Source: Microbacterium sp. SORGH_AS_0888
GTDB taxonomy: Bacteria > Actinomycetota > Actinomycetes > Actinomycetales > Microbacteriaceae
Assembly: GCF_030818905.1 (NCBI RefSeq)
Contig: NZ_JAUTAZ010000001.1
Location: 1,798,001 to 1,862,000 of the forward strand
Reading direction: 5' to 3'
Length of the DNA stretch: 64,000 nucleotides
Position 1 is the stretch's first letter; the number at the start of each line of letters is the position of its first letter. This document shows positions 4,776-60,535 of the stretch, one piece after another. A model generated the notes under the pieces. The model worked only from the letters and a program-made list of their open reading frames with translations, made no database searches and had not been told where the DNA came from. The translations under genes and the position numbers were made by a program.

Positions 4776-4779
4776 GGCC

Positions 4780-6415: not shown

Positions 6416-6447
6416 GGGGTCTCCTCGGGGACGGGGGCGGCTGCGGT

Positions 6448-7971: not shown

Positions 7972-8025
7972 GGTTCCTCCTTCGCGCGGGAACGCTCCCG
8001 CCCTCGGCAGGCTACTGGACGCGCG

Positions 8026-8055
8026 GAGACCCCCGGGCGGTGCGCCGGGGGTCTC
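8026..8055 (-). terminator. Hairpin between pcaG and pcaB
   Basis: A perfect 11-base stem (GAGACCCCCGG with CCGGGGGTCTC) and 8-base loop lies 6 bases beyond the pcaG stop, in the 90-base gap before pcaB. There is no T-run, as is common in high-GC actinobacteria. It could stop part of the transcription so that the dioxygenase subunits are made in excess over PcaB, PcaD and PcaC, or protect the pcaHG transcript end. Confidence 0.7.
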
Positions 8056-8061
8056 TCGCGC

Positions 8062-8658: not shown

Positions 8659-8659
8659 G

Positions 8660-9478: not shown

Positions 9479-9647
9479 GGGTGTCCCCTTCGACGGACCC
9501 TGGGTGGGTAGCCCTCCCAGCGTGGCACCGCGGCGCGGCGGGCCACCGCATCCGCTCTCACCCAGTGGGAATGGCCGCGGAGGAGGAGGGTCGTGGGATG
9601 TCGACCGCCGCCGCCCTGCGCCGCAGCACCCGCCAGGTGCGGCGGCC

Positions 9648-44172: not shown

Positions 44173-45165
44173 CTAGTGCTCTCGCGTTCGGAGCGACGAC
44201 AGGGTGACCGCCGCGATGATGATGAGGCCCGTGACGACCTGCTGGACATAGGCGTTGACGCCGAGGATGTTGAGGCCGTTGCTCATGACGCCGATGATCG
44301 CGACGCCGATCATCGTGCCGCCGAGGTTGGCGGCCCCCGAGCGGATCACGGTCATGCCGAGGAAGACCGCCGCGACGGAGAACATCATGTTGTCGCCGCC
44401 CTGCTCGGCGCTCGCGCTGCCCAGTCGCGCCGCGAGCAGGATGCCGCCGATCGCCGAGATGAACCCGGCGAGCGTGAAGGCCAGGAGCCGGGCGAACCGG
44501 ACGTTCACCCCCGACAGGCGGGCGACCTCGACGTTGCCGCCGATCGCGTGCCAGCGACGGCCGAGCGTCGTGAACCGCAGCATGGCCCAGATGATCAGCG
44601 AGATGGCGATCGCGATGTAGACCGGCAGCGGCACGTTGAGCCAGCGGGCCTGTCCGAGCGCGTTGAACTCCTCCGGCATCCCGAACAGTGTCGTGCCCGA
44701 CGTCACCAGATAGGCCAGCCCGATGACCGATGTCATGGTCGCCAAGGTCGCCACGAACGCCGAGAGGTTGAGGTACGCGATCAGGAATCCGTTGACGAGG
44801 CCGACCCCGAGGCCCACCGCGAGGCCGCCGAGGATCGCCACGCCCGGGGAGTTGTCGCCGAGCAGCATGGCCGCTGTCACGGAGCCCGCGAGACTCGAGG
44901 TCGCCCCCACCGACAGGTCGAAGTCGCCGACGACCATGACGATCGTCTGCGCGCCCGCGATGATCGCGAGGATCGAGACCTGGTAGAGGATGTTGCGGAC
45001 GTTGATGAACGACAGGAACGTGTCGGGCCGCATCGCGAAGAAGAACACGATGAGGATGATGAGCGCCACGACCGTGCCGCCGCTGACGAGCCATCGGCCC
45101 GCCATCCGAGATGACTCCTGGACCCTGACGGCGGCGGTGCGCGTCGAATCCTTCTGAGTGGTCAT
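44173..45165 (-). CDS. Ribose-type sugar ABC transporter, permease
   Basis: A 330-residue RbsC-family permease with 8-10 hydrophobic helices and the family motif GDFDLSVGATSSLAGSVTA near residue 78, plus GGTMIGVAIIGVMSNGLNILG near the end. The ATG at 45165 overlaps the ATPase stop by four bases. Confidence 0.9.
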   Translation of the reverse strand: MTTQKDSTRTAAVRVQESSRMAGRWLVSGGTVVALIILIVFFFAMRPDTFLSFINVRNILYQVSILAIIAGAQTIVMVVGDFDLSVGATSSLAGSVTAAMLLGDNSPGVAILGGLAVGLGVGLVNGFLIAYLNLSAFVATLATMTSVIGLAYLVTSGTTLFGMPEEFNALGQARWLNVPLPVYIAIAISLIIWAMLRFTTLGRRWHAIGGNVEVARLSGVNVRFARLLAFTLAGFISAIGGILLAARLGSASAEQGGDNMMFSVAAVFLGMTVIRSGAANLGGTMIGVAIIGVMSNGLNILGVNAYVQQVVTGLIIIAAVTLSSLRTREH

Positions 45166-46682: not shown

Positions 46683-47746
46683 GACCGGGTCTCCTCGTCG
46701 ACGTCGTTGCAGCGCAGCACGACCTTCGGGTAGGCGCCCGACACGTGGACCGCGAACGCCTCCGCGGCCTGCTCGAGCGGGAAGACCGCCTGGGTGAGCT
46801 CCTCGGTGTCGAGGTGGGGCAGGATCTGCAGTGCGCGCGGGAACGCGTACGGCGAGACGAAGAGTCCCGTGAGGGTGAGCTCGCGCAGGTACAGGTAGTC
46901 GGACAGGTTCAACGGCATCTCGAAGCTCTCCGGGTACATCGCGCCGTAGACCACGGTGCCGCCCTTCGCCGCGAGGTCCAGGAGGCCGCGCACCGCGCGG
47001 GTGGACCCGGATGCGTCGATGACGATGTCGTAGCCGCGCCCGCCGGTGATCTCCTCGGCGCGGGCGAACTGGTCCTCCGCGACGGGGTCGATGACGTGCT
47101 CGGCGCCGTGACGCAGGGCCATCTCACGGCGGTCCGCGATCGGCTCGATCATCGTGAGCGAGGTCGCGCCGTACATCTTGATGACCTGCAGCGCGAGCTG
47201 GCCGATCGGACCGCCGCCGCAGACCGCGACGCGGTCGCCGACGCGGATGCGCGTCTTGTCGGCGATGCGCACGGCGACCGAGGTCGGCTCGAGCAGGCAT
47301 CCCTTGAGCAGCGACACATCGTCGGGAAGGCGGTAGACCTGCGACTCGTGCCACGTCACCGTCTCGGCCATGCCGGGGCGGTTGTAGTCCTGGATGTGCT
47401 CGCAGAACTGCTGCCTGCCCTCCTGACAGGGGCGGCACGTTCCGCAGAAGCGCAGGAAGTTGCCGGCGACGCGGTCGCCCACGCGCAGGCCGTTGCGGTG
47501 CGCGCGCTCCCCGAGCGCCTCGACGACGCCGGAGAGCTCGTGCCCGAGCCCGATCGGCACGTCCGTGCCGAAGAAGCCCTCGGCGAGGTGGGGGTCCGAT
47601 CCGCAGATCGCCGAGTAGGCGACGCGGATGCGGACATCCTCCGGTCCGAGCTCCTGGTCGGGGAAGTCGACCACGCCGATCGTTCCGCGGGTCGTGGGAT
47701 CGGGGTCGCGCAGACTCCCGATACGGGTGACGGCTACGGTCCTCAT
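46679..47746 (-). CDS. Zinc-dependent dehydrogenase (sorbitol/threonine dehydrogenase-like)
   Basis: A 355-residue MDR enzyme: ICGSDPHLAEG near 48, GHELSG near 68, structural cysteines FCGTCRPCQEGRQQFC, and the NAD site CGGGPIGQLAL near 175. It would oxidise a secondary alcohol of a sugar or polyol. It is 21 bases downstream of the transketolase C-half and overlaps the ATPase, so it belongs to the same operon. Confidence 0.87.
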   Translation of the reverse strand: MRTVAVTRIGSLRDPDPTTRGTIGVVDFPDQELGPEDVRIRVAYSAICGSDPHLAEGFFGTDVPIGLGHELSGVVEALGERAHRNGLRVGDRVAGNFLRFCGTCRPCQEGRQQFCEHIQDYNRPGMAETVTWHESQVYRLPDDVSLLKGCLLEPTSVAVRIADKTRIRVGDRVAVCGGGPIGQLALQVIKMYGATSLTMIEPIADRREMALRHGAEHVIDPVAEDQFARAEEITGGRGYDIVIDASGSTRAVRGLLDLAAKGGTVVYGAMYPESFEMPLNLSDYLYLRELTLTGLFVSPYAFPRALQILPHLDTEELTQAVFPLEQAAEAFAVHVSGAYPKVVLRCNDVDEETRS

Positions 47747-47767: not shown

Positions 47768-48730
47768 TCAGGAGGCCGCGATGACGCGGCGGAGCGCGGC
47801 GACCGTGTCGGCCAGCCCGTAGCCGTGCTTGTCGCGCAGCTGCTCGTCCTCGCCGAAGCCGGCGTAGACCTGCGGGATGCCGAGGCGCTCGAACGCGGTC
47901 AGGCACACGCCGTTGTCGGTGACGACATCCGCGATGCGGGTCGCGAGACCGCCGTAGGCCAGGTGGTCCTCGAGGACGACGAACCGACCGCCCGTCTCGG
48001 CGGCGGAGCGGAGGACGAGCTCGGCGTCGATGGGCTTGAGCGTCCACATGTCCACGACGCGCACGGAGCGGCCGTCCTTCGCGAGCTCGTCGGCGGCGTC
48101 CAGCGCCTGCGCGACCGTCGTGCCGTGCGTGAAGATCGTCGCATCCGTGCCTTCGCGGGCGACGATCCCCTTGCCGATGCGCACCTCGTGCTCCCCCGGC
48201 TCGTAGAGGACCTTGTCCTTCTTGCCGACGGCGAGACGGATGTAGATCGGACCGGTCATCGTCATCGACTGGCGGAGCACCTCGCCGACCATGGCCGGGT
48301 CGCCGATGGAGGTGACGGTCATGTTGGTGAGGGCGCCCATGAGGGTCAGGTCCTCGACGGCGTAGTGGGTCGAGCCGCCGTTTCCGACGAGACCGCCGTG
48401 CGTGCCGATGATCTTCACGGGCAGGTTGGGGTAGCAGACATCCGTGCGGATCTGCTCGAGCGCACGCATCGAGAGGAACGGGAGCATTCCGGAGACGACC
48501 GGGATGTTGCCGTCGTAGGCGAGGCCGGCCGAGATGCCCACGCACGCCTGCTCGGCGAGGCCGACGTCGATGAAGCGCTCGGGGAACTTGTCGCGGAACT
48601 CCACGAGGGTCGCGCCGATGTCGGGGGTGAGCACGTAGAGGTTCGGGTAGTCGTCGCCGAGCTCGGCGAGGGTGGATCCGATGACGGATCGGGCGGAGAG
48701 CATCTCTCCGAAGGTGAAGGTCACAGGCAT
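47768..48730 (-). CDS. Transketolase, C-terminal subunit (split form)
   Basis: 320 residues holding the pyrimidine-binding and C-terminal domains: DIGATLVEFRDKFPERFIDVGLAEQACVGISAGLA (the Glu that activates thiamine diphosphate is in GLAEQ) and THGGLVGNGGSTHYAVED. Its ATG shares one base with the stop of the N-half. Split transketolases are common in dedicated sugar pathways, for example the apulose-4-phosphate transketolase pair, and act as two-chain enzymes. Confidence 0.88.
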   Translation of the reverse strand: MPVTFTFGEMLSARSVIGSTLAELGDDYPNLYVLTPDIGATLVEFRDKFPERFIDVGLAEQACVGISAGLAYDGNIPVVSGMLPFLSMRALEQIRTDVCYPNLPVKIIGTHGGLVGNGGSTHYAVEDLTLMGALTNMTVTSIGDPAMVGEVLRQSMTMTGPIYIRLAVGKKDKVLYEPGEHEVRIGKGIVAREGTDATIFTHGTTVAQALDAADELAKDGRSVRVVDMWTLKPIDAELVLRSAAETGGRFVVLEDHLAYGGLATRIADVVTDNGVCLTAFERLGIPQVYAGFGEDEQLRDKHGYGLADTVAALRRVIAAS

Positions 48731-49608
48731 CAGACGGTCTCCTTGTCGCGAGAGGCGTTGAGCGCGGCGAGCGCGCGCTCGAGGTCGGCGGCACCCAGGG
48801 ATCCTGCGTGCCAGGCGAGGTTGCGCTCCATGAAATCGACGCCCTTGCCCTTGACGGTCTCGGCCACGATGACGGTCGGCACGTCGCTGTCGGGGGCGGG
48901 CAGCGCGTCGATGGCGGCCACGAGCTGGGACATGTCGTGGCCGTCGAGCTCGATGACGTTCCAGCCGAACGCGCGCCACTTGTCGGGGTAGGGCTCGAAC
49001 ATGACCCGCTCCTCGGCGAAGCTCGTCATGAGCTGGCGGTTGCGGTCGACGAAGGCGACGAGGTTGCCGAGCTTGTTGCTGCGGGCGGCCATGACGGCCT
49101 CCCAGACGGATCCCTCGCCGGTCTCGCCGTCGCCGAGGAGGCAGAACACGCGGTGGTCCTCGCCGCGTCCGCGGGCGCTCATGGCCATACCGACCGCGAT
49201 CGGCAGACCGTGTCCGAGCGAGCCTGTCGAGGCCTCGACGCCGGGCAGCTGCACCTTGCACGGGTGCATGCCGTAGGCGCTGTCGAGCTGGCCGTAGGTG
49301 TCGACGATGCCGTCGTAGGAGAAGAACCCGCGGATGGCCATCGCGATGTACATGCAGACGGCCGCGTGCCCCTTGCTCAGCACGAAGCGGTCGCGCTCGG
49401 GGTTGGCGATGTCGGTGGGATCCACGTTCATGCCGTATTGGAACAGCACCGTGAAGATGTCCGCGGCCGACAGGTCGCCGCCGATGTGCACGGCTCCCTC
49501 GTAGGTGCCGCACAGGTGCAGCAGCTTCTCGCGCAGCTCGAAAGCGCGGTCCTCCAGCTCTTCGACGCTGGGTCGCGCGCCGGTGTCTGCCAGGGATGTG
49601 GGCGTCAT
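48730..49608 (-). CDS. Transketolase, N-terminal subunit (split form)
   Basis: 292 residues with the thiamine-diphosphate/Mg site LLGDGETGEGSVWEA near 155 and its second half in GNLVAFVDRNRQ, plus SKGHAAVCMY near 79 and GSLGHGLPIAVGMA. It starts the long minus-strand operon after GGAGGATGCG. A role in pentose, apiose or tetrulose breakdown fits the operon; a formaldehyde-accepting (dihydroxyacetone synthase) role is possible but speculative. Confidence 0.88.
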   Translation of the reverse strand: MTPTSLADTGARPSVEELEDRAFELREKLLHLCGTYEGAVHIGGDLSAADIFTVLFQYGMNVDPTDIANPERDRFVLSKGHAAVCMYIAMAIRGFFSYDGIVDTYGQLDSAYGMHPCKVQLPGVEASTGSLGHGLPIAVGMAMSARGRGEDHRVFCLLGDGETGEGSVWEAVMAARSNKLGNLVAFVDRNRQLMTSFAEERVMFEPYPDKWRAFGWNVIELDGHDMSQLVAAIDALPAPDSDVPTVIVAETVKGKGVDFMERNLAWHAGSLGAADLERALAALNASRDKETV

Positions 49609-49722
49609 CGCATCCTCCTCGGGGGGACGACGCGGATCTCCGTCACGGGGTCCACGTCGACTCTCGTTGCTCTCAGGACGTCGCCTCGGTGCGGCGTCGT
49701 TGAGGAAAGTAGCACGAAGTCA

Positions 49723-49735
49723 TTTACAGGTAAAC
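49723..49735. promoter_or_regulatory. MarR-type operator TTTACAGGTAAAC
   Basis: TTTAC-AG-GTAAA is a perfect dyad in the 195-base gap between the transketolase operon and the ALDH at 49804. A very similar dyad, GTTACATATAAACC, lies upstream of the P450 operon at 58409. The two MarR proteins of the window are paralogues, which makes a shared recognition motif likely. Confidence 0.6.
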
Positions 49736-49803
49736 AAGAAAGTTTCTAAACTGGTTGATGAGCGGTCCATGGGGCCCGCTCCACGACACAGAGAGGTGAT
49801 GTG

Positions 49804-51303
49804 ATGACCGATACACTCGCGGCCGGGACCACGGTGCGAACAGGACTTTTCATCGGCGGACAGGAACGGCACACGGACGATGTGCTCACGGTCGCCGACC
49901 CCGCCAAGAAGGGCGTCGTCGTCGGCACGGCCGCATCGGCCTCGCCCCAGGACGTCGAGGACGCCGTCGCGGCGGCCCAGGAGGCCTACCCCGCCTGGGC
50001 CGCGTTGACCCCGCAGGAGCGCGCCGCGGCCATGGCCTCGGCCATCGAGGGGATCGCCGACCTGCGCGACGAGGATGCCGCGATCCTGTCGCAGGAGAAC
50101 GGCAAGGTCGTGGGCGAGGCCTGGGTGGACGCCCTCGTCTTCGAGCTGCGCTGGAACCTCGCGCTCATGCACGCCGACGAGGTCTCGCAGTCCAAGACGC
50201 TGCCCGCGATCCCCGGCGCCATCCCGGTCAACACCAACGTGGCCTACCAGCCGCTGGGAGTGGTGACCATCATCGTGCCCTTCAACTGGCCGATCGCGAT
50301 CCTCGCGGCGTCGCTGCCGCAGGCGCTGCTGGCGGGCAACACGGTCATCGTCAAGGTGCCGCCCACAACGCCGCTGGCCACCGCGCGCCTGACCCAGCGG
50401 GTCGCCGAGAAGCTGCCCGCGGGCGTGCTGAACGTCATCAGCGGGCGCGACGAGAACATGTCCCGCCTGATCGAGAACCCGGACGTCGCGAAGGTGTGCT
50501 TCACCGGCAGCGTCGGCGGCGGCAAGCGGATCATGGAGATGGCGGCCCGCTCGCTCACCCGCGTGACGCTCGAGCTCGGCGGCAACGACGCGGCGATCTT
50601 CCTCGAGGACGCCGTCCTCGACGACGCGCACGTCGACCGGCTGTTCGGCGCGGTGTTCGACACGACCGGGCAGATCTGCATGAACGCGAAGCGGATCTAC
50701 GTCCACCGCTCACGGCTGGAGGAGCTCACGGCCGCCCTCGCCGCGCGGCTGGAGCAGACGCGCCTGGGCTGGGGCCTGGACTCCGGCACCACCATGGGCC
50801 CGCTGCACTCTCCGCTGCAGAAGCGGTTCGTGGACGAGCTCATCGCCGAGGCCAAGGACGCCGGCGCGGACGTGCGCGAGTTCGGCGCGCTGCCCGAGGG
50901 CGAGCTGGCCGACGGCAACTTCGTGCGCCCCGCGCTCGTGCTCGATCCGGACCCGTCGCTGCGTGTGGTCACGGAGGAGCAGTTCGGCCCCGTCATCCCC
51001 CTCATCCCCTTCGACACCGAGGAGGAGGCGGTGCGCCTGGCCAACGACACGTGGGCGGGCCTGGGCGGCTCGGTATGGACGGCGAGCGCGGAGGCGGCCC
51101 AGCGCGTCGGCTCGCAGCTCGTGTGCGGCTACGTCTGGATCAACGACCACGGTGCCAACCGCTGCGACCTGCGCGCTCCGTTCGGCGGCATGAAGCAGTC
51201 GGGCATGGGTCGCGAGCAGGGCATCGAGGGCATCCGTGCGTTCCAGGACACCCGCTCGATCGCGGTCCTGGACCCCGAGGCGCTCGCGGCGATGGCGCAC
51301 TGA
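49804..51303 (+). CDS. NAD(P)-dependent aldehyde dehydrogenase
   Basis: A 499-residue ALDH: IVPFNWPIAILAASLPQALLAGN near 160, LELGGNDAAIFLE near 258, and the catalytic Cys in TTGQICMNAKRIYVH near 295. It is most like succinate-semialdehyde and broad acyl-aldehyde enzymes. The ATG at 49804 is preceded by GAGAGG; GTG at 49801 is a less likely start. A MarR gene follows, separated by a strong terminator. It is divergent from the sugar operon. Confidence 0.85.
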   Translation: MTDTLAAGTTVRTGLFIGGQERHTDDVLTVADPAKKGVVVGTAASASPQDVEDAVAAAQEAYPAWAALTPQERAAAMASAIEGIADLRDEDAAILSQENGKVVGEAWVDALVFELRWNLALMHADEVSQSKTLPAIPGAIPVNTNVAYQPLGVVTIIVPFNWPIAILAASLPQALLAGNTVIVKVPPTTPLATARLTQRVAEKLPAGVLNVISGRDENMSRLIENPDVAKVCFTGSVGGGKRIMEMAARSLTRVTLELGGNDAAIFLEDAVLDDAHVDRLFGAVFDTTGQICMNAKRIYVHRSRLEELTAALAARLEQTRLGWGLDSGTTMGPLHSPLQKRFVDELIAEAKDAGADVREFGALPEGELADGNFVRPALVLDPDPSLRVVTEEQFGPVIPLIPFDTEEEAVRLANDTWAGLGGSVWTASAEAAQRVGSQLVCGYVWINDHGANRCDLRAPFGGMKQSGMGREQGIEGIRAFQDTRSIAVLDPEALAAMAH

Positions 51304-51316
51304 CTTATCGATAAGT
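51303..51316. promoter_or_regulatory. 14-base perfect palindrome ACTTATCGATAAGT
   Basis: A fully symmetric AT-rich site beginning at the last base of the ALDH stop and directly followed by a 17-base-pair hairpin. AT-rich perfect dyads are rare in this window. It may be an operator for the downstream MarR gene (110 bases before its start) or simply form part of the terminator. Confidence 0.5.
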
Positions 51317-51356
51317 GCTGAGCGGGGCCCGGCACGCTCGCCGGGCCCCGCTCAGC
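51317..51356 (+). terminator. Strong GC hairpin after the ALDH gene
   Basis: GCTGAGCGGGGCCCGGC pairs perfectly with GCCGGGCCCCGCTCAGC around the loop ACGCTC, a 17-base-pair stem. There is no T-run, as usual for actinobacterial terminators. It separates the ALDH from the MarR gene, so the latter needs its own promoter in 51357-51412. Confidence 0.75.
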
Positions 51357-51412
51357 CGCTACTGTCGCTGACACCGGTCGTGCGCGCACGCGAGCAGCGG
51401 GAAGGACGAAGG

Positions 51413-51919
51413 ATGGATCCCACAGCCGACGGTCTCCAGCGGGAGCCGCTGCGAACGACGCTGGATCCGGAGAACTTCACCCCCCGGCTCCTCTCGCTGC
51501 TGTCGAACGCGCTCGTCTGGCGCGAGTCGAACGAGCTGCGGCGCCGGTTCGGCCTCGGCACGAACGACTGGCGCGTGATCTCGGCGCTCGCCTTCCGCCC
51601 CGGATCGCCGGCGACCGAGGTGTCGGAGTTCATCGGCGTCAACAAGGCCGTCGTCTCCAAGAGCGTGAACACGCTCGCGGAACGGGGCCTGATCGTCCTG
51701 CTGGACGGGCCGCGCGGGTCGCGCCCCATGTACCTGACCGCGGCCGGCGTGCAGATGCACGACGACATGCTCCCGATCTCGATGCGGGGACAGGACATCG
51801 TGCTGGCCCACCTCTCGGCGGAGGAGATCGTGCGGGTGAACGACCTGCTCCGCCGCATGCTGGTCGACGCCAAGCAGCTGCAGGTGCTCGAGAACGAGAC
51901 CGCCGCATCCTCCCGCTGA
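51413..51919 (+). CDS. MarR-family regulator (paralogue 1)
   Basis: 168 residues with the winged helix GSPATEVSEFIGVNKAVVSKSVNTLAERGLI and wing DGPRGSRPMYLT. It is clearly homologous to the MarR gene at 58470: both share LVW, GTN-WRV, the INK/VNK-SKSVN block and RR-LRKML-like C-termini. The start follows GAAGGACGAAGG. It is likely to repress the ALDH upstream and perhaps itself. Confidence 0.85.
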   Translation: MDPTADGLQREPLRTTLDPENFTPRLLSLLSNALVWRESNELRRRFGLGTNDWRVISALAFRPGSPATEVSEFIGVNKAVVSKSVNTLAERGLIVLLDGPRGSRPMYLTAAGVQMHDDMLPISMRGQDIVLAHLSAEEIVRVNDLLRRMLVDAKQLQVLENETAASSR

Positions 51920-52913: not shown

Positions 52914-54374
52914 TCAGTCGAGGCCGATCGTGACCGACTTCGTGCGGGTGTACCCGTCGAGCGCATCGGGGCCGTCCTCGCGCCCCCACCCCGAGGCCTT
53001 GACACCGCCGAAGGGCATCGACGGGTCCAGAGCCGTCCAGGTGTTGACCCAGACGATGCCCGCCTCGAGCGCGTCCGAGACGCGGTGCGCCCGGCTGATG
53101 TCACTCGTCTGGACCCCGGCGGCGAGCCCGTAGGCCGTGCTGTTCGCGAGCTCGAGCGCCTCCGCCTCGGTGTCGAAGGCCTGCACCGTGAGAACGGGGC
53201 CGAAGACCTCCTCCTGCACCGCGGCGGCCGTGTTGGGCAGGTCGGCGATGATCGTCGGGGCGTAGTAGAAGCCGCCGTCGAGGTCGATGCGCGCGCCCCC
53301 GACGACGACGCGACCCCCCGCGGCCACCGCATCCTCGACCATGCCGGCGACCCGGTCGCGCTGCGCCGCGCTCACGAGCGGGCCCACGGCCGTGCCCTCG
53401 TCCGCGGGCCGCCCGACGGGGACGGCCGCGACCGCCGCCGCGAGAGCGTCGATGAGCGTGTCGTAGACCGGGCGCTCGACGAGCAGCCGGGTGCCCGCCA
53501 TGCAGAACTGCCCGGTGTTGTACACGAAGGAGTTCACGATCGTGCCGACGACCTTCTCGAGGTCCGCATCGGCGAACACGATGTTGGCCCCGTTGCCGCC
53601 GAGCTCGACCATGACGGGCTTGAGGTGCTCGCCCGCCGTCGCCGCGACGACCCTGCCGACCGTGGTCGAACCGGTGAAGGCGACCATGTCGATGCCCGGG
53701 TGGCGCACGAGGGCGTCGCCGAGCTCGGGCCCCGCTCCGGGGATGACGTTGACGACGCCGTCGGGGACGCCCGCCTCGGCGAGGATGTCGGCCAGCAGCA
53801 ACGCCGAGAGCGGGGTCTGCGGCGCCGGCTTGTGCACGACCGCGTTGCCGGCCGCGAGGGCCGGCGCGATCTTCGAGGCGGCGAGGATCAGGGGGAAGTT
53901 GAAGGGGCTGATCGCGGCGACGACGCCGCGCGGCTCACGGCGCGTGAAGGCGAAGGTGGGCGCGCCGGTACGACGGGCGGCGCCGTCGTGGTGGCCGGCG
54001 AGGGTCCCGTAGTACTCGAACTCGCCGATCGCGCCGGGCACGTCGACGAGGCGGGCGAGCGTGATGGGCTTGCCGACGTCGAGGCTCTCGGCCTGCGCGA
54101 GCTCCTCGCTGCGCTCGGTCATGAGGGCGGCGGCGCGCAGCAGGATGCGTCCGCGCTCGCGGCCGCTCAGGGCCGCCCAGCCGTGGCGTGCCTGCTGCGC
54201 GGCGGCCACCGCGGCGTCGACGTCGGCGACGGTCGCCGAGGCGACGCTCGCGACGACCTCGCCGGTGGCCGGGTCGACGACGTCCATCCGGCCGCCGTCG
54301 GCGGCGGGCCGCCAGGAGCCGCCGATGAACAGGGAGTCCTGCCGGACGTCGACAGCGAGCGAGGTGATGGTCAT
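52914..54374 (-). CDS. NAD-dependent aldehyde dehydrogenase (intact paralogue of the gene at 37122)
   Basis: 486 residues, uninterrupted: ISPFNFPLILAASKIAPALAAGN near 152, VELGGNGANIVF near 252, the catalytic Cys in NTGQFCMAGTRLLVER near 285, and a C-terminal PFGGVKASGWGRE. It is closely related over its whole length to the broken ALDH at 37122 and serves to locate the extra base there. The start follows GAGGATCCC. A hairpin at 54405-54428 lies in its leader. Confidence 0.87.
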   Translation of the reverse strand: MTITSLAVDVRQDSLFIGGSWRPAADGGRMDVVDPATGEVVASVASATVADVDAAVAAAQQARHGWAALSGRERGRILLRAAALMTERSEELAQAESLDVGKPITLARLVDVPGAIGEFEYYGTLAGHHDGAARRTGAPTFAFTRREPRGVVAAISPFNFPLILAASKIAPALAAGNAVVHKPAPQTPLSALLLADILAEAGVPDGVVNVIPGAGPELGDALVRHPGIDMVAFTGSTTVGRVVAATAGEHLKPVMVELGGNGANIVFADADLEKVVGTIVNSFVYNTGQFCMAGTRLLVERPVYDTLIDALAAAVAAVPVGRPADEGTAVGPLVSAAQRDRVAGMVEDAVAAGGRVVVGGARIDLDGGFYYAPTIIADLPNTAAAVQEEVFGPVLTVQAFDTEAEALELANSTAYGLAAGVQTSDISRAHRVSDALEAGIVWVNTWTALDPSMPFGGVKASGWGREDGPDALDGYTRTKSVTIGLD

Positions 54375-54510: not shown

Positions 54511-55452
54511 CTAGAGCTCGAGCACCAGCCGGTCGCCCTTGCAGCGCGAGACGCAGATCATCATGACCTCGGACTCCTCCCGCTCGGCGGCCGTCAGCAC
54601 GGCGTCGCGATGGTCGGGCTCCCCCTCCAGCACGAAGGTCTCGCACGTGCCGCAGGTCCCGCCGCGGCACGACGACGGCGCGGACGCCCCCGCCTCGGCG
54701 ACCTTGTCCAGGATCGACTCCCCGGGGGCGACCGTGACCGTGCGGCCCGTCAACGAGAGCTCGACCTCGAAAGGGTGGTCCGTCTCCATCGTCACGACGT
54801 TGTCGTTGACGAAGCGCTCGACCCGCAGCTCGACTCCCGCCTCGCCGCACAGCCGTTCGAGCTCGTCGAGCAGCCGGCCGGGACCGCACGCGTACACGAC
54901 CGCGCCCGCCGCGTCGGCGACGATCGCGGGCAGCGCCATGCGCTCCCCCGCCGAGCTCGCGTACACGTGCACGTGCGCGCCGTAGGGCTCGAGCTCAGCG
55001 CCGAAGGCCATCGTGGCGGGCTCGCGGCCGGCGTAGTGCAGCGCCCAGTCCGCGCCCGCCGCCTCGGCCGCCGCGATCATGGGCAGGATCGGGGTGATGC
55101 CGATTCCGCCCGCGACGAAGACCATCCGCGCGGCCGGTGAGAAGCCGAACAGCTCGCGCGGCTCCGACACCCGGACGAGCTGACCGGCACGGGTCCCCTC
55201 GTGGATGCGGATGCTGCCGCCGCCGCCCTCGGGCTCGCGCAGCACGGCGATGCGGTACTGCGTGCGCTCCGCGGGGTCGCCGCAGAGGGAGTACTGCCGC
55301 ACGAGAGCGGGCCGGCCGGGGCGGTCGATGACGACGTCGATGTGGGCGCCGGGGCGCCACGCGGGCAGCTCCGCGCCCATCGGGTCGGCGAGGATCAGCC
55401 CCGCGACCCCGTCGGCCTCCTCGATCCGGCGCGCGACCTGGAGCGTCAGCAT
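54511..55452 (-). CDS. Phthalate-family oxygenase reductase (flavin, NAD, C-terminal [2Fe-2S]), P450 partner
   Basis: 313 residues in the order flavin domain (RQYSLCG at 52-58), NAD domain (AGGIGITP at 114-121) and plant-type [2Fe-2S] ferredoxin with Cys262, Cys267, Cys270 and Cys300. This layout is that of phthalate dioxygenase reductase and VanB. It would carry electrons from NADH to the P450 at 57145, the only oxygenase in the operon. Its start overlaps the kinase gene by seven bases. A PbdB-type reductase of a para-alkoxybenzoate demethylase is the best guess. Confidence 0.87.
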   Translation of the reverse strand: MLTLQVARRIEEADGVAGLILADPMGAELPAWRPGAHIDVVIDRPGRPALVRQYSLCGDPAERTQYRIAVLREPEGGGGSIRIHEGTRAGQLVRVSEPRELFGFSPAARMVFVAGGIGITPILPMIAAAEAAGADWALHYAGREPATMAFGAELEPYGAHVHVYASSAGERMALPAIVADAAGAVVYACGPGRLLDELERLCGEAGVELRVERFVNDNVVTMETDHPFEVELSLTGRTVTVAPGESILDKVAEAGASAPSSCRGGTCGTCETFVLEGEPDHRDAVLTAAEREESEVMMICVSRCKGDRLVLEL

Positions 55453-57143
55453 CCGAGCTCCCGCCGCAGCACCTCGAGCTGGAGGGCGACCGCGGTGGCC
55501 CCGGGGTCGGGGACGCCCACCGCGCGCTCGCCGACGTAGCTGCTGCGACCGAGCGAGGGGCGCAGCGCCGCCGTGGCACGGGCTCCCGCGTCGGCGGCGG
55601 CCGCCGCGGCGGCGAGGTCGGCGGGGTCCGCGGCGAGCGCATCCACCGCCGGCTGCAGCGCGTCGACCATCGTGCTGTCGCCGGGCGCGGCCCCGCCGAT
55701 CGTGCGGATCCGCTCGACGCCGGCGGCGAAGGCGTCGGCCCACCGCCGCGCCGCGGGCGAAGCCCCGGATCCCGCGAGCGACTCCGACATCGCGAGCAGC
55801 AGGATGCTGTAGAGCGGCCCGGAGGTGCCGCCGACCTCGTGCCGCACGATCTGCGAGAGCCCGGCGAGATAGGCCGATGCGTCGGGCAGGCTCCCGAGCA
55901 GATCGCCCGCCGCCCGCAGCGCCGCGGCCCCGCGGGCGAGGTTGATGCCGAGGTCGCCGTCGCCGACCGTGCGGTCGAGCGCGGTCAGCTCCGGCTCGGC
56001 CGCCTCGAGCGCCGCGGCGAGCGCGGCGGCTCTCGCGTGCAGCCGGGCGACGTCGTCCGAGCGGGGCCCCTCCCCCGCCCCGACCTCGAAGCGGTGGGGA
56101 GCGGGCACGACGCTCGTGCGCGCCGCGCGCAGCTCGGCCGACCAGGCCGGGAAGGCAAGAGTGCGAGCGGGGGATGCCAGGAGCGCTGCGGTCTCGTCGT
56201 CGAGACGGGCGAGGGTGAGCGAGGCCCCGGGCATCTCGAGCGAGGTGAGGAAGGGCGCGGCCCACGTGAGCCGCACGTCCAGACGGCGACGCTCGAGCGC
56301 GGCCAGCACGTCGCCGTGCAGGATGCGCAGCTCCAGATCGGGCGTCGCCCCCAGCGAGTTGACGAGGGCCACGACCCGGTCGCCCTCGCCGAGCCCCCGG
56401 TCGCGGACGACCGCGTCCACCAGGCGGTCGGCGATCTCACGGCTGGTCACGAGCGCGCCGCGCTCGCTGCCGGCTTCCCCATGGATGCCGAGACCCCACT
56501 CGACCTCACCGGGCGCGAGCGCGAAGGACGGCTCCGCGGCGCCGGGCACGACGCAGGCGCCGAGGGCCACCCCCATCGTGGCCGCCCCCAGAAGGAAACG
56601 GCGGCAGAGCTCGGCGATCTCCGCGAGCGAGGCACCCGCCTCGGCCGCGGCACCCGCGAGCTTGTGCACGAGGACGGTGGCGGTGAGCCCGCGGCGGCCG
56701 GCGCGCGAGCGGTCGCCGAGGGCGGCGTCGTCGGCCACGACGACGATCTCGATCGCGATGCCCTCCACGCGTGCCATCTCGGCGGCGAGCCCGAAGTTGA
56801 GCCGGTCGCCCGTGTAGTTCTTCACGATCAGGAGCACTCCGGCATCCGTCGCGACGGCCCGGATCGCGGCATGGACCGCGTCCACCGAGGGCGAGGTGAA
56901 GACGGGCCCGAGGACGGCGGCATCCAGCATGCCCTCGCCCACGTAGCCGGCGTGGGCGGGCTCGTGCCCGGAGCCGCCACCGGTCACGAGGGCGACGCGA
57001 TCGGGGCTCTTGCGCGTGGCGGGCTCGCGCACCACGACCGGCCAGCCCTCGACCCGGGCGAGGTGCCCGGTGCCGCGCACGAGGCCGGCGATGTAGTCCT
57101 CGATGACGTCACCGGGCGCGTTGAGGATCTTCTCGACCGGCAC
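55446..57143 (-). CDS. Dihydroxyacetone kinase, DhaK-DhaL fusion (ATP-dependent)
   Basis: 565 residues: an N-terminal DhaK domain with GSGHEP at 57-62 and the substrate-binding His221 in GLGIHGEAG, then a DhaL domain with the Mg/ATP aspartates in TVGDGDLGINLARG near 390 and the HEVGGTSGPLY loop. The fusion uses ATP directly, as in the Citrobacter enzyme, not PTS phosphate. Substrates are dihydroxyacetone or related tetruloses. It lies one base after the P450 stop and overlaps the P450 reductase, which is an unexpected place for a triose kinase. The linker between domains is normal and there is no frameshift. Confidence 0.9.
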   Translation of the reverse strand: MPVEKILNAPGDVIEDYIAGLVRGTGHLARVEGWPVVVREPATRKSPDRVALVTGGGSGHEPAHAGYVGEGMLDAAVLGPVFTSPSVDAVHAAIRAVATDAGVLLIVKNYTGDRLNFGLAAEMARVEGIAIEIVVVADDAALGDRSRAGRRGLTATVLVHKLAGAAAEAGASLAEIAELCRRFLLGAATMGVALGACVVPGAAEPSFALAPGEVEWGLGIHGEAGSERGALVTSREIADRLVDAVVRDRGLGEGDRVVALVNSLGATPDLELRILHGDVLAALERRRLDVRLTWAAPFLTSLEMPGASLTLARLDDETAALLASPARTLAFPAWSAELRAARTSVVPAPHRFEVGAGEGPRSDDVARLHARAAALAAALEAAEPELTALDRTVGDGDLGINLARGAAALRAAGDLLGSLPDASAYLAGLSQIVRHEVGGTSGPLYSILLLAMSESLAGSGASPAARRWADAFAAGVERIRTIGGAAPGDSTMVDALQPAVDALAADPADLAAAAAAADAGARATAALRPSLGRSSYVGERAVGVPDPGATAVALQLEVLRRELGC

Positions 57144-57144
57144 C

Positions 57145-58350
57145 TCAGGCCACCTCCGCTCGAACCGGCAGGGACGTGAACCCGCGCAGCCAGTTGTTGT
57201 AGAAGCGCACCGGCTCGCCCGCGGGCGTGAGTGCGCGCACGCGCCGCGCGAGGGCGGACAGCAGGCACGTCGCCTCCATCCGCGCCATCATCTGGCCGAC
57301 GCAGCCGTGGATGCCGGTCCCGAACGCGAGGTGCCCGGAGGTGTCGCGCGCGAGGTCGTACTCGTCCGGCCGCTCCCAGCGCCGCGGGTCGCGGTTGGCG
57401 GCGGCGAGGTCGAGGATGACCTTCTCGCCCTCGCCGAGCGGGATCCCGCCGAGGACCGTCGGCTTGGCGGTCGTCCGGCCGATGAACGGGCTCGGCGCGC
57501 TCCAGCGCAGCCCCTCCTCGAAGGCGCGTCGCGCGAGCGAGGGGTCGGCGTGCAGGGCCGCCCAGGTCTCGGGCCGGTCGAGCAGCGCCGTGAGGGTCAG
57601 CTGGATGCCGAAGATCGTCGTGTCGACTCCCGCCGAGAGGAAGGTGCGCACGAGCATGGCGGCGTCCTCGTGCGCGATCGTGCCGTCGTCGGCGAAGCCG
57701 TAGATCGTGTGGCCGAGACCGCCCGGGCGCAGCGCCTCTCGGCGCATCTGCCAGTCGACCCAGGTCGCGGCCTCGGCCGCCGCCTCCGCCGCCGCGTGGT
57801 AGAGCTCGTTGCGCGGCCCCATCGCCTGGAAGTTGAGGTTGGAGTAGGGCAGCAGGTGCTGACGGCCGTCGGGGTCGATGCCGAGCGCGTCGGGCAGGAC
57901 CTGGAGCGGGTAGGCCACCGCCAGCTGCGAGGCCGCGTCGATGACGGGACCCTCTGCGAGCACGCGGTCGACGAGCTCGTCGGCGCGCTGCTGGAACTCG
58001 TCCGTGAGCCGCCGGACGACGCGCGGGCTGAGGACGGACGTCATGACGCGCCGGTACTTCGTGTGCCCGGGCGGGTCGTTCTCGAGGATGACGCTGGGCT
58101 TGCGCCAGTTCTCGGTGCGCTTGGTGTTCGTCAGCCCCGTGCCCGCCGAGGACTCGAAGGTCTCGGGGTCGCGGAACACCTGCTCGACGATGTCGTAGCG
58201 CCCCGTGAACCAGACCCCGTGCTGCGGCAGCCACACGAGCTCGGCGGTCTCGCGGATCCGCTCGTCCGTGCCGATCGGATCGTCCAGCCCCGCCTGCGAG
58301 AACGGATCGACCTCGAGGGTGGGGACCGGTTCGCGGGTGACTGTGTCCAT
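57145..58350 (-). CDS. Cytochrome P450, CYP199-like para-substituted benzoate monooxygenase
   Basis: 401 residues: I-helix SAGVDTT (239-245), ExxR as Glu279-Arg282, and heme Cys350 in HLAFGTGIHGCVGQ. It reads like Rhodopseudomonas CYP199A4 in many places. The residues that hold the benzoate carboxylate there are kept: Arg83 and Ser86 (WRKPS, for Arg92 and Ser95) and Arg235 (LVRTFLSAG, for Arg243). Substrates are therefore likely 4-methoxybenzoate or similar para-alkoxybenzoates, O-demethylated to 4-hydroxybenzoate plus formaldehyde. A divergent MarR gene and a dyad at 58409 lie upstream. It heads the P450-kinase-reductase operon. Confidence 0.88.
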   Translation of the reverse strand: MDTVTREPVPTLEVDPFSQAGLDDPIGTDERIRETAELVWLPQHGVWFTGRYDIVEQVFRDPETFESSAGTGLTNTKRTENWRKPSVILENDPPGHTKYRRVMTSVLSPRVVRRLTDEFQQRADELVDRVLAEGPVIDAASQLAVAYPLQVLPDALGIDPDGRQHLLPYSNLNFQAMGPRNELYHAAAEAAAEAATWVDWQMRREALRPGGLGHTIYGFADDGTIAHEDAAMLVRTFLSAGVDTTIFGIQLTLTALLDRPETWAALHADPSLARRAFEEGLRWSAPSPFIGRTTAKPTVLGGIPLGEGEKVILDLAAANRDPRRWERPDEYDLARDTSGHLAFGTGIHGCVGQMMARMEATCLLSALARRVRALTPAGEPVRFYNNWLRGFTSLPVRAEVA

Positions 58351-58408: not shown

Positions 58409-58423
58409 GGTTACATATAAACC
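58409..58423. promoter_or_regulatory. MarR-type operator GGTTACATATAAACC
   Basis: A near-symmetric, AT-rich dyad midway in the 119-base gap between the P450 operon and the divergent MarR gene. It shares TTACA..TAAAC with the site at 49723. Binding here would control both directions. The ATATAA core may also be part of a promoter -10 element. Confidence 0.6.
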
Positions 58424-58469: not shown

Positions 58470-59057
58470 ATGGCCCCGCCCACTCCCCCGCCCGACGCCG
58501 CGATCGCGCACGCGGCCGAACGCGGGCTGCTCACCTCGCGCCTCGACCACACGATCGACCGGGACACCTTCAGCCCCGCGCTGCTCGGGCTGCTCAACAA
58601 CGTGCTCGTGTGGGGCGGGTCTCGTGTGCTCACGACCCTGCACGGGGTGGGCACGAACGAGTGGAGGGTCCTGAGCGCGCTGGGCAACTACCCGGGCGCG
58701 ACCGCTCGCGAGCTGTGCGCCGTGCTCGGGATCAACAAGTCGATCGCGTCCAAGAGCGTCAACGCGCTGGTCGAGGCGGCCTACGTGGGTCAGGTCGATG
58801 GCCGCCGCGGCTCCCGCCACCTCTTCCTCACCGACGCGGGCGCCGCGCTCCACGACGAGCTCATGACGATCGCGCTCCGGCGGGTGGAGATCCTCCAGCA
58901 TCGCCTCAGCCCGGCGGAGGTGGGCGAGCTGAACCGACTGCTGCGCAAGATGCTCGACTCCGCGGACGACCTGCAGGAGTACGAGCGGGAGCTGCTCGCC
59001 GGCATCCCTCAGCCGGACACGACCCGCAGCGAGCCGAACGGCGTGCCCGCCAGGTAG
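58470..59057 (+). CDS. MarR-family regulator of the P450 operon (paralogue 2)
   Basis: 195 residues with the winged helix ARELCAVLGINKSIASKSVNALVEAAYVGQVDGRRGSRHLFLT. It is a paralogue of the MarR gene at 51413, with a longer N-terminus and C-terminus. It is divergent from the P450 operon, so it is the likely benzoate-responsive repressor of it. Its last 49 bases overlap the 3' end of the convergent gene at 59009. Confidence 0.87.
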   Translation: MAPPTPPPDAAIAHAAERGLLTSRLDHTIDRDTFSPALLGLLNNVLVWGGSRVLTTLHGVGTNEWRVLSALGNYPGATARELCAVLGINKSIASKSVNALVEAAYVGQVDGRRGSRHLFLTDAGAALHDELMTIALRRVEILQHRLSPAEVGELNRLLRKMLDSADDLQEYERELLAGIPQPDTTRSEPNGVPAR

Positions 59058-59416
59058 GCGTAGAGGAAGAGGATGTCGGCGTCCGCCGCCAGCCGTGTCT
59101 CGTAGCCGTCCGCCGTCTCCGTGAGCTCGACGAGCCGGCGCTTGTCCGCCTCCTCCAGCGGATCGTCGATCCACAGGGCGCCGTCGCGCACGACCGCGCC
59201 GACGAGTCCGAGGCTCAGCGCGCCGCCGTGGGCGCTGAGCGCGATGCGGCCCGTCGCCTCCACCGCGCCGTCGTCGCGCACCACGGCCGGCAGTCGCACG
59301 GCGGTGCCGGTGAACTCGGCCCCGCCCGCGGCATCCACCCTGAAGTCCCGGTTGCGCTGCAGGTAGCCGAGGAGGGTGTCCTTGACGTGCCACTCGATCA
59401 TGGCTTCGCGCACCAT
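59009..59416 (-). CDS. Small Htaa-domain-like protein
   Basis: 135 residues. The pattern IEWHVKDTLLGYL, then GRIALSAHGGALSLGL and GALWIDDP, resembles the Htaa (heme-binding-associated) domain, but there is no signal peptide or membrane anchor. The ATG at 59416 follows GGAGGAGCG. Its 3' end overlaps the MarR gene on the other strand by 49 bases. Similarity is by eye and weak; it is otherwise a hypothetical cytoplasmic protein. Confidence 0.6.
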   Translation of the reverse strand: MVREAMIEWHVKDTLLGYLQRNRDFRVDAAGGAEFTGTAVRLPAVVRDDGAVEATGRIALSAHGGALSLGLVGAVVRDGALWIDDPLEEADKRRLVELTETADGYETRLAADADILFLYAYLAGTPFGSLRVVSG

Positions 59417-59484: not shown

Positions 59485-59500
59485 GGTTGACATGTCAACC
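59485..59500. promoter_or_regulatory. 16-base perfect palindrome GGTTGACATGTCAACC
   Basis: A perfectly symmetric operator 24 bases before the chosen start of the aldo/keto reductase. It contains an ATG (59492) that opens a longer in-frame reading, but that ATG lacks a ribosome site. The half-site TTGACAT also occurs in the MarR-type operator at 16003. Candidates for binding are the MarR protein at 58470 or the LacI protein at 61747. Confidence 0.7.
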
Positions 59501-59524
59501 GTTATCAACGAGGAAGTCGACGAC

Positions 59525-60535
59525 GTGGAACACCGTTTCCTGGGCAACAGCGGGTTCAAGATCTCCGAGATCACCTACGGCAACTGGATCACGCACGGCT
59601 CGCAGGTCGAGCTCGACGCGGCGATCGCGACCGTGCGGGCGGCCCTGGATGCCGGGATCACGACGTTCGACACGGCGGACGTGTACGCCGACACGGCGGC
59701 GGAGGTCGTGCTGGCCGATGCGCTGAAGGGTCAGCGGCGTGAGTCGCTGGAGATCTTCACGAAGGTGTACTTCCCGATCGGACCCAAGGGGCCCAATGAC
59801 ACGGGGCTCTCCCGCAAGCATGTGATGGACGGCATCCACGGGTCGCTGCGCCGGCTCGGCACCGACTACGTGGACCTGTTCCAGGCCCACCGGTATGACT
59901 ACGAGACGCCGTTGGAGGAGACGATGCAGGCCTTCGCCGACATCGTCCGGCAGGGCAAGGCCCTCTACATCGGGGTCAGCGAGTGGACCGCGGAGCAGCT
60001 GCGCGCCGGCCACGCCCTGGCCCGCGAGCTCCGCTTCCCGCTCGTCTCCAACCAGCCCCAGTACTCGATGCTGTACCGCGTGATCGAGCGCGAGGTCGTG
60101 CCGACCAGCGAAGAGCTCGGCATGTCCCAGATCGTGTGGTCGCCCGTGGCGATGGGCGTTCTCACCGGCAAGTACCTTCCCGGTGCGCCCGTGCCGGACG
60201 GCAGCCGGGCCACCGACGCGACCGGCGGCTTCTTCATGAAGCGCTTCCTCGAGGACGACGTGCTCACGGCGGTCCAGCGCTTGAAGCCGGTGGCCGAGCA
60301 GGCCGGGCTCACGATGCCCCAGCTCGCCATCGCCTGGGTGCTGCAGAACGACAACGTCGCCGCAGCCCTCGTGGGCGCCTCGCGCCCCGAGCAGCTGCGG
60401 TCGAACGTGAAGGCGGCGGGCGTGCGCCTCGACGCCGACACGCTCGCCGCGATCGACGAGGCTCTGGCCGGCGTCGTCGTGGACGACCCGGCGCTGACCG
60501 AGAAGTCCTCGCCGCGTACACGCTGGACCGACTGA
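59525..60535 (+). CDS. Aldo/keto reductase (voltage-gated K+ channel beta-subunit type)
   Basis: A 336-residue TIM-barrel oxidoreductase using NADPH. The catalytic tetrad is Asp49, Tyr54 (TADVYADT), Lys80 (FTKVYF) and His122 (QAHRYD). I chose the GTG at 59525, which has GAGGAAG at the right distance; the in-frame ATG at 59492 lies inside a palindromic operator with no ribosome site. It would reduce aldehydes or ketones. It is coupled (TGATG) to the epoxide hydrolase. Confidence 0.85.
   Translation: MEHRFLGNSGFKISEITYGNWITHGSQVELDAAIATVRAALDAGITTFDTADVYADTAAEVVLADALKGQRRESLEIFTKVYFPIGPKGPNDTGLSRKHVMDGIHGSLRRLGTDYVDLFQAHRYDYETPLEETMQAFADIVRQGKALYIGVSEWTAEQLRAGHALARELRFPLVSNQPQYSMLYRVIEREVVPTSEELGMSQIVWSPVAMGVLTGKYLPGAPVPDGSRATDATGGFFMKRFLEDDVLTAVQRLKPVAEQAGLTMPQLAIAWVLQNDNVAAALVGASRPEQLRSNVKAAGVRLDADTLAAIDEALAGVVVDDPALTEKSSPRTRWTD

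What the first reader, a model, noticed from the sequence alone, without database searches (positions are those of the whole stretch)
54511..58350. P450 demethylase operon with a dihydroxyacetone kinase between oxygenase and reductase
A CYP199-like P450 with the para-benzoate carboxylate clamp (Arg83, Ser86, Arg235), a DhaK-DhaL kinase and a phthalate-type reductase are joined by a one-base gap and a seven-base overlap. O-demethylation of 4-alkoxybenzoates releases formaldehyde, and dihydroxyacetone is what a formaldehyde-accepting transketolase makes. The tight coupling suggests that the kinase serves the product side of demethylation. I know of no described pathway with this arrangement. The kinase may instead act on a tetrulose or glyceraldehyde.
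Basis: partly seen in the sequence, partly recalled or inferred. Interest (0 to 1): 0.78.

Follow-up and report, generated by a model that had tools for sequence, protein, structure and literature searches.

The report
P450–triose kinase operon for aryl ethers
A soil-type bacterium carries, in one tight operon, an oxygenase that should split a side group off an aromatic acid and a kinase that captures small sugars; the same pair recurs in distantly related bacteria, which points to an undescribed route that feeds both halves of the split molecule into metabolism.

Summary
A CYP199-family P450, a fused DhaK-DhaL kinase and a PDR/VanB-type reductase lie head to tail with the stated 1-base gap and 7-base overlap, and Arg83, Ser86 and Arg235 align with the benzoate clamp. 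The pairing is not accidental: 7 of 7 other Microbacterium genomes found by the P450 carry the kinase at the locus; 0 of 5 canonical CYP199A-like loci do, including this genome's second P450. Four proteobacterial loci share MarR, P450 and kinase with different importers. The P450 clade keeps the clamp but has lost two pocket phenylalanines. The formaldehyde route is not favoured: no transketolase homologue within about 10 kb of those four kinases, and no kinase within 20 kb in 9 of 9 transketolase loci read from P450-free genomes. Best reading, inferred: the P450 O-dealkylates a para-glyceryl-ether benzoate, releasing dihydroxyacetone or glyceraldehyde for the kinase and 4-hydroxybenzoate for pobA/pca in the same window. 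A shared operator-like site links the operon to an aldo-keto reductase and a transketolase module. Substrate untested.

The parts
57145..58350 (-). CYP199-family cytochrome P450, 401 aa, clamp Arg83/Ser86/Arg235, altered para-end pocket (Met177, Ile290, Gly291, Trp387)
55446..57143 (-). fused DhaK-DhaL (dihydroxyacetone-type) kinase, 565 aa, GTG start
54511..55452 (-). PDR/VanB-type flavin/2Fe-2S reductase, 313 aa
   Evidence: relatives named PDR/VanB family
58470..59057 (+). MarR-family regulator (here MarR2), divergent from the P450; relative found at 7 of 7 Microbacterium and 4 of 4 proteobacterial loci
58409..58422 (+). AT-rich palindromic operator-like site between P450 and MarR2 (score 26.2; highest in 30 random sequences 15.6)
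59009..59416 (-). small protein without Pfam match, found in 6 of the 7 Microbacterium relatives
59492..60535 (+). aldo/keto reductase (nearest NCBIfam subfamily L-glyceraldehyde 3-phosphate reductase, 210 bits against a cut-off of 448)
59486..59499 (+). operator-like site overlapping the aldo/keto reductase start (score 16.5)
   Evidence: sites also at the AKR promoters of L107, L109, L112, L167
60556..61635 (+). epoxide-hydrolase-like alpha/beta hydrolase
52914..54374 (-). aldehyde dehydrogenase (ALDH1), 136 bases after the reductase; among the 7 relatives seen at this place only in L107
52058..52879 (-). short-chain dehydrogenase
51236..51919 (+). MarR-family regulator (MarR1), paralogue of MarR2 (44% over 160 aa); the start is probably internal, near codon 66
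49801..51303 (+). aldehyde dehydrogenase (ALDH2) of the transketolase module
48730..49608 (-). split transketolase, N-terminal half
47768..48730 (-). split transketolase, C-terminal half
49722..49735 (+). operator-like site between TktN and ALDH2 (score 14.7, below the random maximum of 15.6; the corresponding site is the best hit of its stretch in 13 of 13 other TK loci)
46679..47746 (-). zinc-type alcohol dehydrogenase of the transketolase module
45162..46682 (-). ABC transporter ATPase of the transketolase module (sugar type judged by eye)
11459..12646 (+). 4-hydroxybenzoate 3-monooxygenase (pobA), expected consumer of the aromatic product
   Evidence: subfamily cut-off passed, equivalog not
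638..10400 (-). pca (beta-ketoadipate) genes, from a pcaF-like thiolase to an IclR-like regulator; thiolase and pcaD by NCBIfam hits below the equivalog cut-offs, the rest named by eye

Best explanation
Shown: a recurring module of a MarR regulator, a CYP199-family P450 with an intact carboxylate clamp but a rebuilt para-side pocket, and a triose-type kinase, usually with a redox partner and an importer nearby. Inferred: the importer brings in an aromatic acid whose para oxygen carries a glyceryl-type (C3 polyol) group. The P450 holds the carboxylate and hydroxylates the ether carbon. The hemiacetal or hemiketal collapses to 4-hydroxybenzoate (or vanillate) plus a free triose: dihydroxyacetone if the ether is at C2 of glycerol, glyceraldehyde if at C1. 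The kinase phosphorylates the triose for glycolysis; pobA and pca, in the same window, take the phenol. Such ethers are plausible lignin fragments (recalled, from no call). The operon probably answers to a MarR operator of a type shared with the aldo-keto reductase gene and the split-transketolase module.
For: Kinase at the locus in 7 of 7 other Microbacterium genomes found with the P450 alone and in 0 of 5 canonical CYP199A-like loci; Fisher p 0.0008 counting the window. Of 31 listed P450 homologues of 60% identity or more on contigs of 8 kb or more, 18 have a contig of the same length as a listed kinase's, and 3 of the other 13 were read directly to carry it. Four of 80 kinase loci kept from a capped genome scan have a P450 of 45-56% identity beside it: Aquamicrobium, Pararhodobacter, Ramlibacter, Altericroceibacterium. 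Importers differ: NMT1/SsuA ABC, TRAP, TctC, MFS. So oxygenase plus kinase seem to be the fixed part, which is easiest if the P450 product is the kinase substrate. Clamp residues equal in 120 of 120 homologues; Phe185 replaced in 120 of 120; the Phe at the PbdA Phe291 position absent in 119 of 120. pobA and pca are in the window, and in M. cremeum lie about 15 kb or more from the P450. Kinase motifs intact.
Against: No substrate was tested; the glyceryl ether is inferred from the kinase and the pocket. The 4 proteobacterial loci were found through the kinase, so they do not show how often this P450 lacks it. Equal contig length shows a shared contig, not adjacency (only 6 of the 18 contigs are under 20 kb), and 10 of 31 stay unknown. 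Ser244 is Thr or Ala in 111 of 120 homologues, so carboxylate binding may differ. The importer genes that 5 of 7 relatives hold inside the operon are absent from it in the window. At the proteobacterial loci the operator matrix gives no clear site in the MarR gap (12.8 in L022 and L029, with higher hits elsewhere in those stretches; none among the printed top hits of L025 and L059).
Confidence: 0.42

Rival explanations
1. First reader's route (a bacterial xylulose-monophosphate shunt): the P450 demethylates a methoxybenzoate, the split transketolase condenses formaldehyde with xylulose 5-phosphate to dihydroxyacetone, and the kinase phosphorylates that.
For: The transketolase orthologue is in 7 of 8 P450-kinase genomes against 41 of 287 others of the genus. 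It lies within about 25 kb of the operon in the window, G901 (L113), G900 (L111/L123) and G840 (L109/L166), and probably near it in G891, where one MarR1 gene seems to be cut by two contig ends. Its promoter carries the same type of operator-like site. PMC8879981 (passages read) describes DAS as a transketolase of the yeast XuMP pathway.
Against: 41 genomes have the transketolase without the P450, and 0 of 9 such loci read (of 41) hold the kinase within 20 kb; kinases elsewhere in those genomes were not looked for as such. G920 (M. cremeum) has P450 and kinase but no such transketolase. None of the 4 proteobacterial loci has one in the stretch read; a housekeeping transketolase elsewhere is not excluded. 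The para-side pocket differs from the methoxybenzoate enzymes, and a canonical CYP199A-like pair without kinase exists in the same genome.
Confidence: 0.08
2. The P450 cleaves a larger beta-ether (lignin-type arylglycerol beta-aryl ether carrying a carboxylate), releasing an aryl hydroxymethyl ketone, which the kinase phosphorylates at the CH2OH and an aldolase then splits to an aromatic aldehyde and dihydroxyacetone phosphate.
For: Dihydroxyacetone-type kinases act on hydroxymethyl ketones (recalled); the pocket has been rebuilt; aldehyde dehydrogenases lie nearby in the window, L107 and L111.
Against: I noticed no aldolase gene among the neighbours, though none was searched for; no homologue of the window's ALDH1, ALDH2 or ALDH3 was listed in the stretches of the four proteobacterial loci; the kinase pocket is known for short substrates (recalled).
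Confidence: 0.15
3. The kinase serves another small hydroxycarbonyl product (a tetrulose or glycolaldehyde) from a different para-substituent.
For: The kinase falls below the glycerone-kinase equivalog cut-off (493 against 575 bits); specificity cannot be read from sequence.
Against: Motifs are those of dihydroxyacetone kinases; I noticed no tetrulose-phosphate isomerase among the neighbours, though none was searched for.
Confidence: 0.15
4. The kinase is an unrelated passenger in an aromatic island.
For: The window is an aromatic catabolic island with many modules.
Against: 7 of 7 relatives, tight gene spacing, and recurrence in Proteobacteria with different neighbours.
Confidence: 0.04

Closest known systems
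PbdA/PbdB of Rhodococcus jostii RHA1 (CYP199A p-methoxybenzoate O-demethylase; PMC11530827, abstract and passages read)
   Same: CYP199-type P450; Arg84, Ser87 and Arg236 kept; Phe173 and Leu90 equivalents kept; separate reductase; aromatic product expected to be 4-hydroxybenzoate
   Different: Phe176 and Phe291 equivalents are Met and Ile, Ser237 is Thr (positions carried over by alignment to CYP199A2); a triose kinase sits in the operon
CYP199A2/CYP199A4 of Rhodopseudomonas (CYP199A4 pocket from PMC11854964, passages read)
   Same: closest solved relatives; 48.5% identity to CYP199A2 without gaps
   Different: para-side pocket and the FFRTT and NNTLRG motifs replaced through nearly all of the 120 listed homologues
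DhaK-DhaL fused ATP-dependent dihydroxyacetone kinase (1un9; Citrobacter freundii by recall)
   Same: two-domain architecture and catalytic motifs
   Different: context: beside an aromatic O-dealkylase-type P450 rather than glycerol dehydrogenases (the latter recalled)
XuMP / dihydroxyacetone synthase pathway of methylotrophic yeasts (PMC8879981, passages read)
   Same: a transketolase and a dihydroxyacetone-type kinase near a possible formaldehyde source
   Different: transketolase is split, lies in its own transporter-bearing module and is not tied to the kinase

Membership tests
CYP199 family P450 | over 40% identity to CYP199A members (naming rule recalled) | tested here: met
   189 of 390 identical to CYP199A2 (48.5%); phmmer E 2.4e-115
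CYP199A p-methoxybenzoate O-demethylase | carboxylate contacts Arg84, Ser87, Ser237 (PbdA) | tested here: inconclusive
   Arg83 and Ser86 kept; Ser237 is Thr236; in 120 homologues T 86, A 25, S 9
CYP199A p-methoxybenzoate O-demethylase | pocket Phe173, Phe176, Phe291 (conserved in CYP199A4, PMC11530827) | tested here: not met
   only the first kept; Met177 and Ile290 here
CYP199A p-methoxybenzoate O-demethylase | turnover of p-methoxybenzoate | not testable with these tools
   needs enzyme assay
DhaK-DhaL dihydroxyacetone-type kinase | Dak1 and Dak2 domains with catalytic motifs | tested here: met
DhaK-DhaL dihydroxyacetone-type kinase | glycerone kinase equivalog score over cut-off | tested here: not met
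   TIGR02361 493 against 575 bits; broader subfamily NF011049 passed, 568 against 492
XuMP (formaldehyde-fixing) pathway | a transketolase tied to the kinase | tested here: not met
   no kinase within 20 kb at 9 of 9 transketolase loci read from P450-free genomes; P450 and kinase without this transketolase in G920 and in the stretches of L022, L025, L029, L059. Against this: co-occurrence in 7 of 8 genomes
XuMP (formaldehyde-fixing) pathway | activity of the transketolase with formaldehyde | not testable with these tools
   needs assay

The most novel reading that the evidence does not exclude
Two paralogous MarR regulators and one operator type run a two-armed regulon for lignin-derived aryl-C3 units. 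The P450-kinase arm splits O-linked glyceryl aryl ethers into an aromatic acid and a triose. The transketolase arm (importer, alcohol dehydrogenase, split transketolase, aldehyde dehydrogenases) takes C-linked arylglycerols: oxidation gives an aryl ketose, transketolase cuts it to an aromatic aldehyde and passes the two-carbon unit to a sugar phosphate, and the aldehyde is oxidised. I know of no transketolase described as an aromatic side-chain lyase (recalled; the one search near it, listed two papers, neither about this by title).
Probability: 0.15. Interest if true: 0.85.

Novelty: new variant of a known kind. Interest (0 to 1): 0.6.

Why it matters
O-demethylation releases the alkyl carbon as formaldehyde. 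A P450 whose leaving group is a triose, caught by a kinase made from the same operon, would recover all the carbon of an aryl ether and would add a route for lignin fragments that known demethylases do not cover. The P450 signature (clamp kept, para-side Phe lost, NNWLRG) and the adjacent kinase give a direct way to find more such systems and to name their substrate.

Tried and rejected
Considered and dropped. (1) Chance neighbours: rejected by the relatives. (2) Simple methoxybenzoate demethylase: disfavoured by the pocket and by kinase-free canonical loci. (3) Independent recruitment of the kinase in each lineage: a first one-clade test was badly set, because true clade members stood outside the set, and is discarded; the second did not reject one clade (p-AU 0.425), so single origin and repeated recruitment cannot be told apart. 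(4) Plasmid records: kinase hits (38 records) and P450 hits (52 records) were all under 60% identity; no record stood in both printed lists, but 18 and 12 rows were not printed; contexts not followed. (5) Wider searches: a phylum-wide P450 search found only the window's own genome, 1 of 346 at E 1e-100; order- and family-wide kinase searches at E 1e-120 found 3 of 396 and 2 of 398, own genome included, the others at 49-51% identity. The close clade is rare in the genomes sampled. (6) Papers: joined dihydroxyacetone (kinase) with P450 or CYP199 and listed 0, 2, 2 and 2 papers, none on such a pathway by title; two searches asked about lignin ethers; some searches were background. The library holds open-licence papers only, and apart from passages of three papers none was opened.

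Caveats on counts: of the 13 match rows, one is the window's own P450 and 5 were followed with 20 kb (in L116 the P450 lies about 2 kb from the contig end); the other 7, at 33-42% identity, were read only in loci of about 4 kb (no kinase hit there). The homologue lists print the best 120 only. Two of these 80 (L069, L082) have P450s of 26-33% identity nearby and are not counted. The co-occurrence p-values ignore relatedness of genomes. The operator controls were 30 first-order Markov sequences; the control P450 loci L114-L118 gave best scores of 7.5-13.4.


Full report
WHAT IS THERE. On the minus strand of the window lie, in order, a P450 (58350-57145), a kinase (57143-55446) and a reductase (55452-54511); the one-base gap and the seven-base overlap are exact, and start and stop codons are in place. 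The P450 matches CYP199A2, CYP199A4 and a CYP199 entry (9g9q, PbdA) best among solved structures, with 48.5% identity to CYP199A2. The kinase has Dak1 and Dak2 domains and passes a dihydroxyacetone-kinase subfamily cut-off but not the narrower glycerone-kinase one. The reductase is of the phthalate dioxygenase reductase type. A divergent MarR gene (58470-59057) follows, then a small protein without Pfam match, an aldo/keto reductase and an epoxide-hydrolase-like protein. The window is positions 1798001-1862000 of a single 3.64 Mb contig. Its genus group contains genomes whose contig lengths equal those listed for Microbacterium cremeum, M. album and M. halotolerans, so I take the genus as Microbacterium.

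IS THE PAIR MORE THAN CHANCE. Searching with the P450 alone, 8 of 295 genomes of the genus have a match at E 1e-110 or better, the window's own included. In all 7 others the kinase, the reductase and a MarR2 relative lie at the locus. P450-kinase-reductase is contiguous in the window, L107 and L110. In L108, L109, L111 and L112 importer genes are interspersed; in L113 they lie between P450 and reductase, and the kinase follows the reductase. The importer is of the NMT1/SsuA type, tested on L108 and seen in the others by homology. As controls, 5 loci with a CYP199A-like P450 of 43-47% identity beside a reductase, one of them a second copy in this same genome, have no kinase and no MarR2 relative in the 20 kb stretches read. 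A genome scan with the kinase, capped at 80 loci, gave 4 (Aquamicrobium, Pararhodobacter, Ramlibacter, Altericroceibacterium) with a P450 of 45-56% identity next to it. In those four a MarR2 relative of 31-40% identity persists. The importer next door is TRAP in Aquamicrobium, TctC in Ramlibacter and MFS in Altericroceibacterium, and looks like the same TRAP in Pararhodobacter by eye. Aquamicrobium has a ferredoxin and a ferredoxin reductase instead of the PDR-type protein; Pararhodobacter and Ramlibacter have ferredoxin-like genes by eye; in Altericroceibacterium none was noticed. The constant part is MarR, P450 and kinase.

WHAT THE P450 SEES. In PbdA, Arg84, Ser87 and Ser237 bind the carboxylate, and Phe173, Phe176, Phe291, Ala241, Thr245 and Val288 form the hydrophobic pocket (PMC11530827, abstract and passages read); in CYP199A4 the pocket is Arg92, Ser95, Leu98, Phe182, Phe185, Ser244, Ala248 (PMC11854964, passages read). 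In 120 of 120 homologues listed the Arg, the Ser, the Leu, the first Phe and the second Arg (Arg235 here) are kept. Phe185 is Met 104, Gln 9, Ala 7. The position of the first Phe of FFRTT (PbdA Phe291) is Ile in 115, with Phe once. The Thr of NNTLRG is Trp in 119, with one gap. The five control P450s keep the CYP199A letters at nearly all of these positions. So an aromatic carboxylate is still likely to be held, while the end where the para substituent meets the heme has been rebuilt. That speaks for a larger or more polar para group than methoxy. The assignment of single positions rests on alignment; no model was made.

WHAT THE KINASE DOES. The four motifs looked for are intact in 11 of 12 P450-linked kinases; Altericroceibacterium departs in one. 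An O-dealkylating P450 turns the ether carbon into a carbonyl. If the alkyl group is glyceryl, the product is dihydroxyacetone or glyceraldehyde, both classic substrates of such kinases (recalled). One oxygenase and one kinase then deliver both halves: the triose to glycolysis, the phenol to pobA (11459-12646) and the pca genes. In M. cremeum pobA lies about 15 kb from the P450, with pca homologues beyond it (L125, L108). This is the reading I commit to, at 0.42; the glyceryl ether itself is inference.

THE FORMALDEHYDE ROUTE. A split transketolase lies about 5 kb beyond the operon. Its orthologue is in 48 of 295 genomes of the genus and in 7 of the 8 with the P450 (Fisher p 1.4e-5, 7.7e-5 without the window, relatedness ignored). 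But the transketolase sits in a module of its own, with a MarR paralogue (MarR1, 44% to MarR2), aldehyde dehydrogenases, an alcohol dehydrogenase, a short-chain dehydrogenase and an ABC importer that looks sugar-type by eye. In 9 loci read, of the 41 genomes that have it without the P450, there is no kinase within 20 kb. M. cremeum has P450 and kinase without it, and the four proteobacterial loci show none in the stretches read. I put this route at 0.08.

A SHARED OPERATOR. The region upstream of the P450 in the Microbacterium relatives holds an AT-rich palindrome. A matrix built from seven relatives, the window left out, finds in the window first 58409 (P450/MarR2 gap, 26.2), then 59486 (start of the aldo/keto reductase, 16.5), then 49722 (between TktN and ALDH2, 14.7); the best scores of 30 random sequences had median 10.7 and maximum 15.6. 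A site lies at the aldo/keto reductase promoter in 4 of 4 other loci where I saw that gene at 78% identity or more (L107 17.1, L109 25.4, L112 23.5, L167 14.4). In 13 of 13 other transketolase loci scanned the best hit of the stretch lies beside TktN, with scores from 10.3 to 20.3. In M. cremeum a further strong site lies before an unidentified gene (L108 12656, 24.7). At the proteobacterial loci the matrix finds no clear site in the MarR gap, though L022 and L029 share one sequence there (12.8). Within Microbacterium the kinase operon, the aldo/keto reductase gene and the transketolase module thus probably form one regulon or two cross-talking ones. It suggests, and does not show, that both arms treat related aromatic-C3 compounds.

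KNOWN OR NEW. P450, kinase and reductase are each of known families. The P450 is a CYP199-family member that fails the pocket test of CYP199A O-demethylases. Four paper searches that join dihydroxyacetone (kinase) with P450 or CYP199 listed 0, 2, 2 and 2 papers, none on such a pathway by title; these papers were not opened, and subscription papers are not held. I rate it a new variant of a known kind, with a real chance of being an undescribed pathway.

Noticed in passing
window 45162-51919: A split-transketolase module (MarR1, ALDH2, TktN, TktC, alcohol dehydrogenase, ABC importer, further dehydrogenases); TktN orthologue in 48 of 295 genomes of the genus, in three of the loci read (L160-L162) beside acyl-CoA ligase and MaoC homologues; its substrate is unknown.
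   Followed up: partly
window 59009-59416: A 135-aa protein without Pfam match is found in 6 of 7 Microbacterium relatives of the locus; by eye it recalls the HtaA haem-uptake domain (recalled, no call); the only solved match is weak (2dg7, E 0.0029).
   Followed up: partly
window 638-12646: A full-looking pca set plus pobA with IclR-like regulators (partly by eye); a gene that looks metE-like by eye (3549-4775) sits inside, without an NCBIfam match at 1e-50.
   Followed up: partly
window 30996-34592: A second NMT1/SsuA-type ABC importer, whose ATPase is 89% identical to one beside the P450 locus of M. cremeum (L108).
   Followed up: no
L118 (G000:C1:1928800-1948799): Second CYP199A-like P450 with reductase in the same genome, canonical motifs, no kinase in 20 kb; possibly the ordinary methoxybenzoate demethylase.
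   Followed up: partly
L059 94-1581 and L025 14178-16484: Sulfatase genes (PF00884) near two of the proteobacterial P450-kinase pairs.
   Followed up: no
L108 12656: Strong operator-like site (24.7) at the start of an unidentified gene 11709-12656 in M. cremeum.
   Followed up: no
G000:C1:2255243-2256181 (L119): Second, distant dihydroxyacetone-type kinase of this genome, with homologues of the window's ABC ATPase and alcohol dehydrogenase nearby.
   Followed up: no
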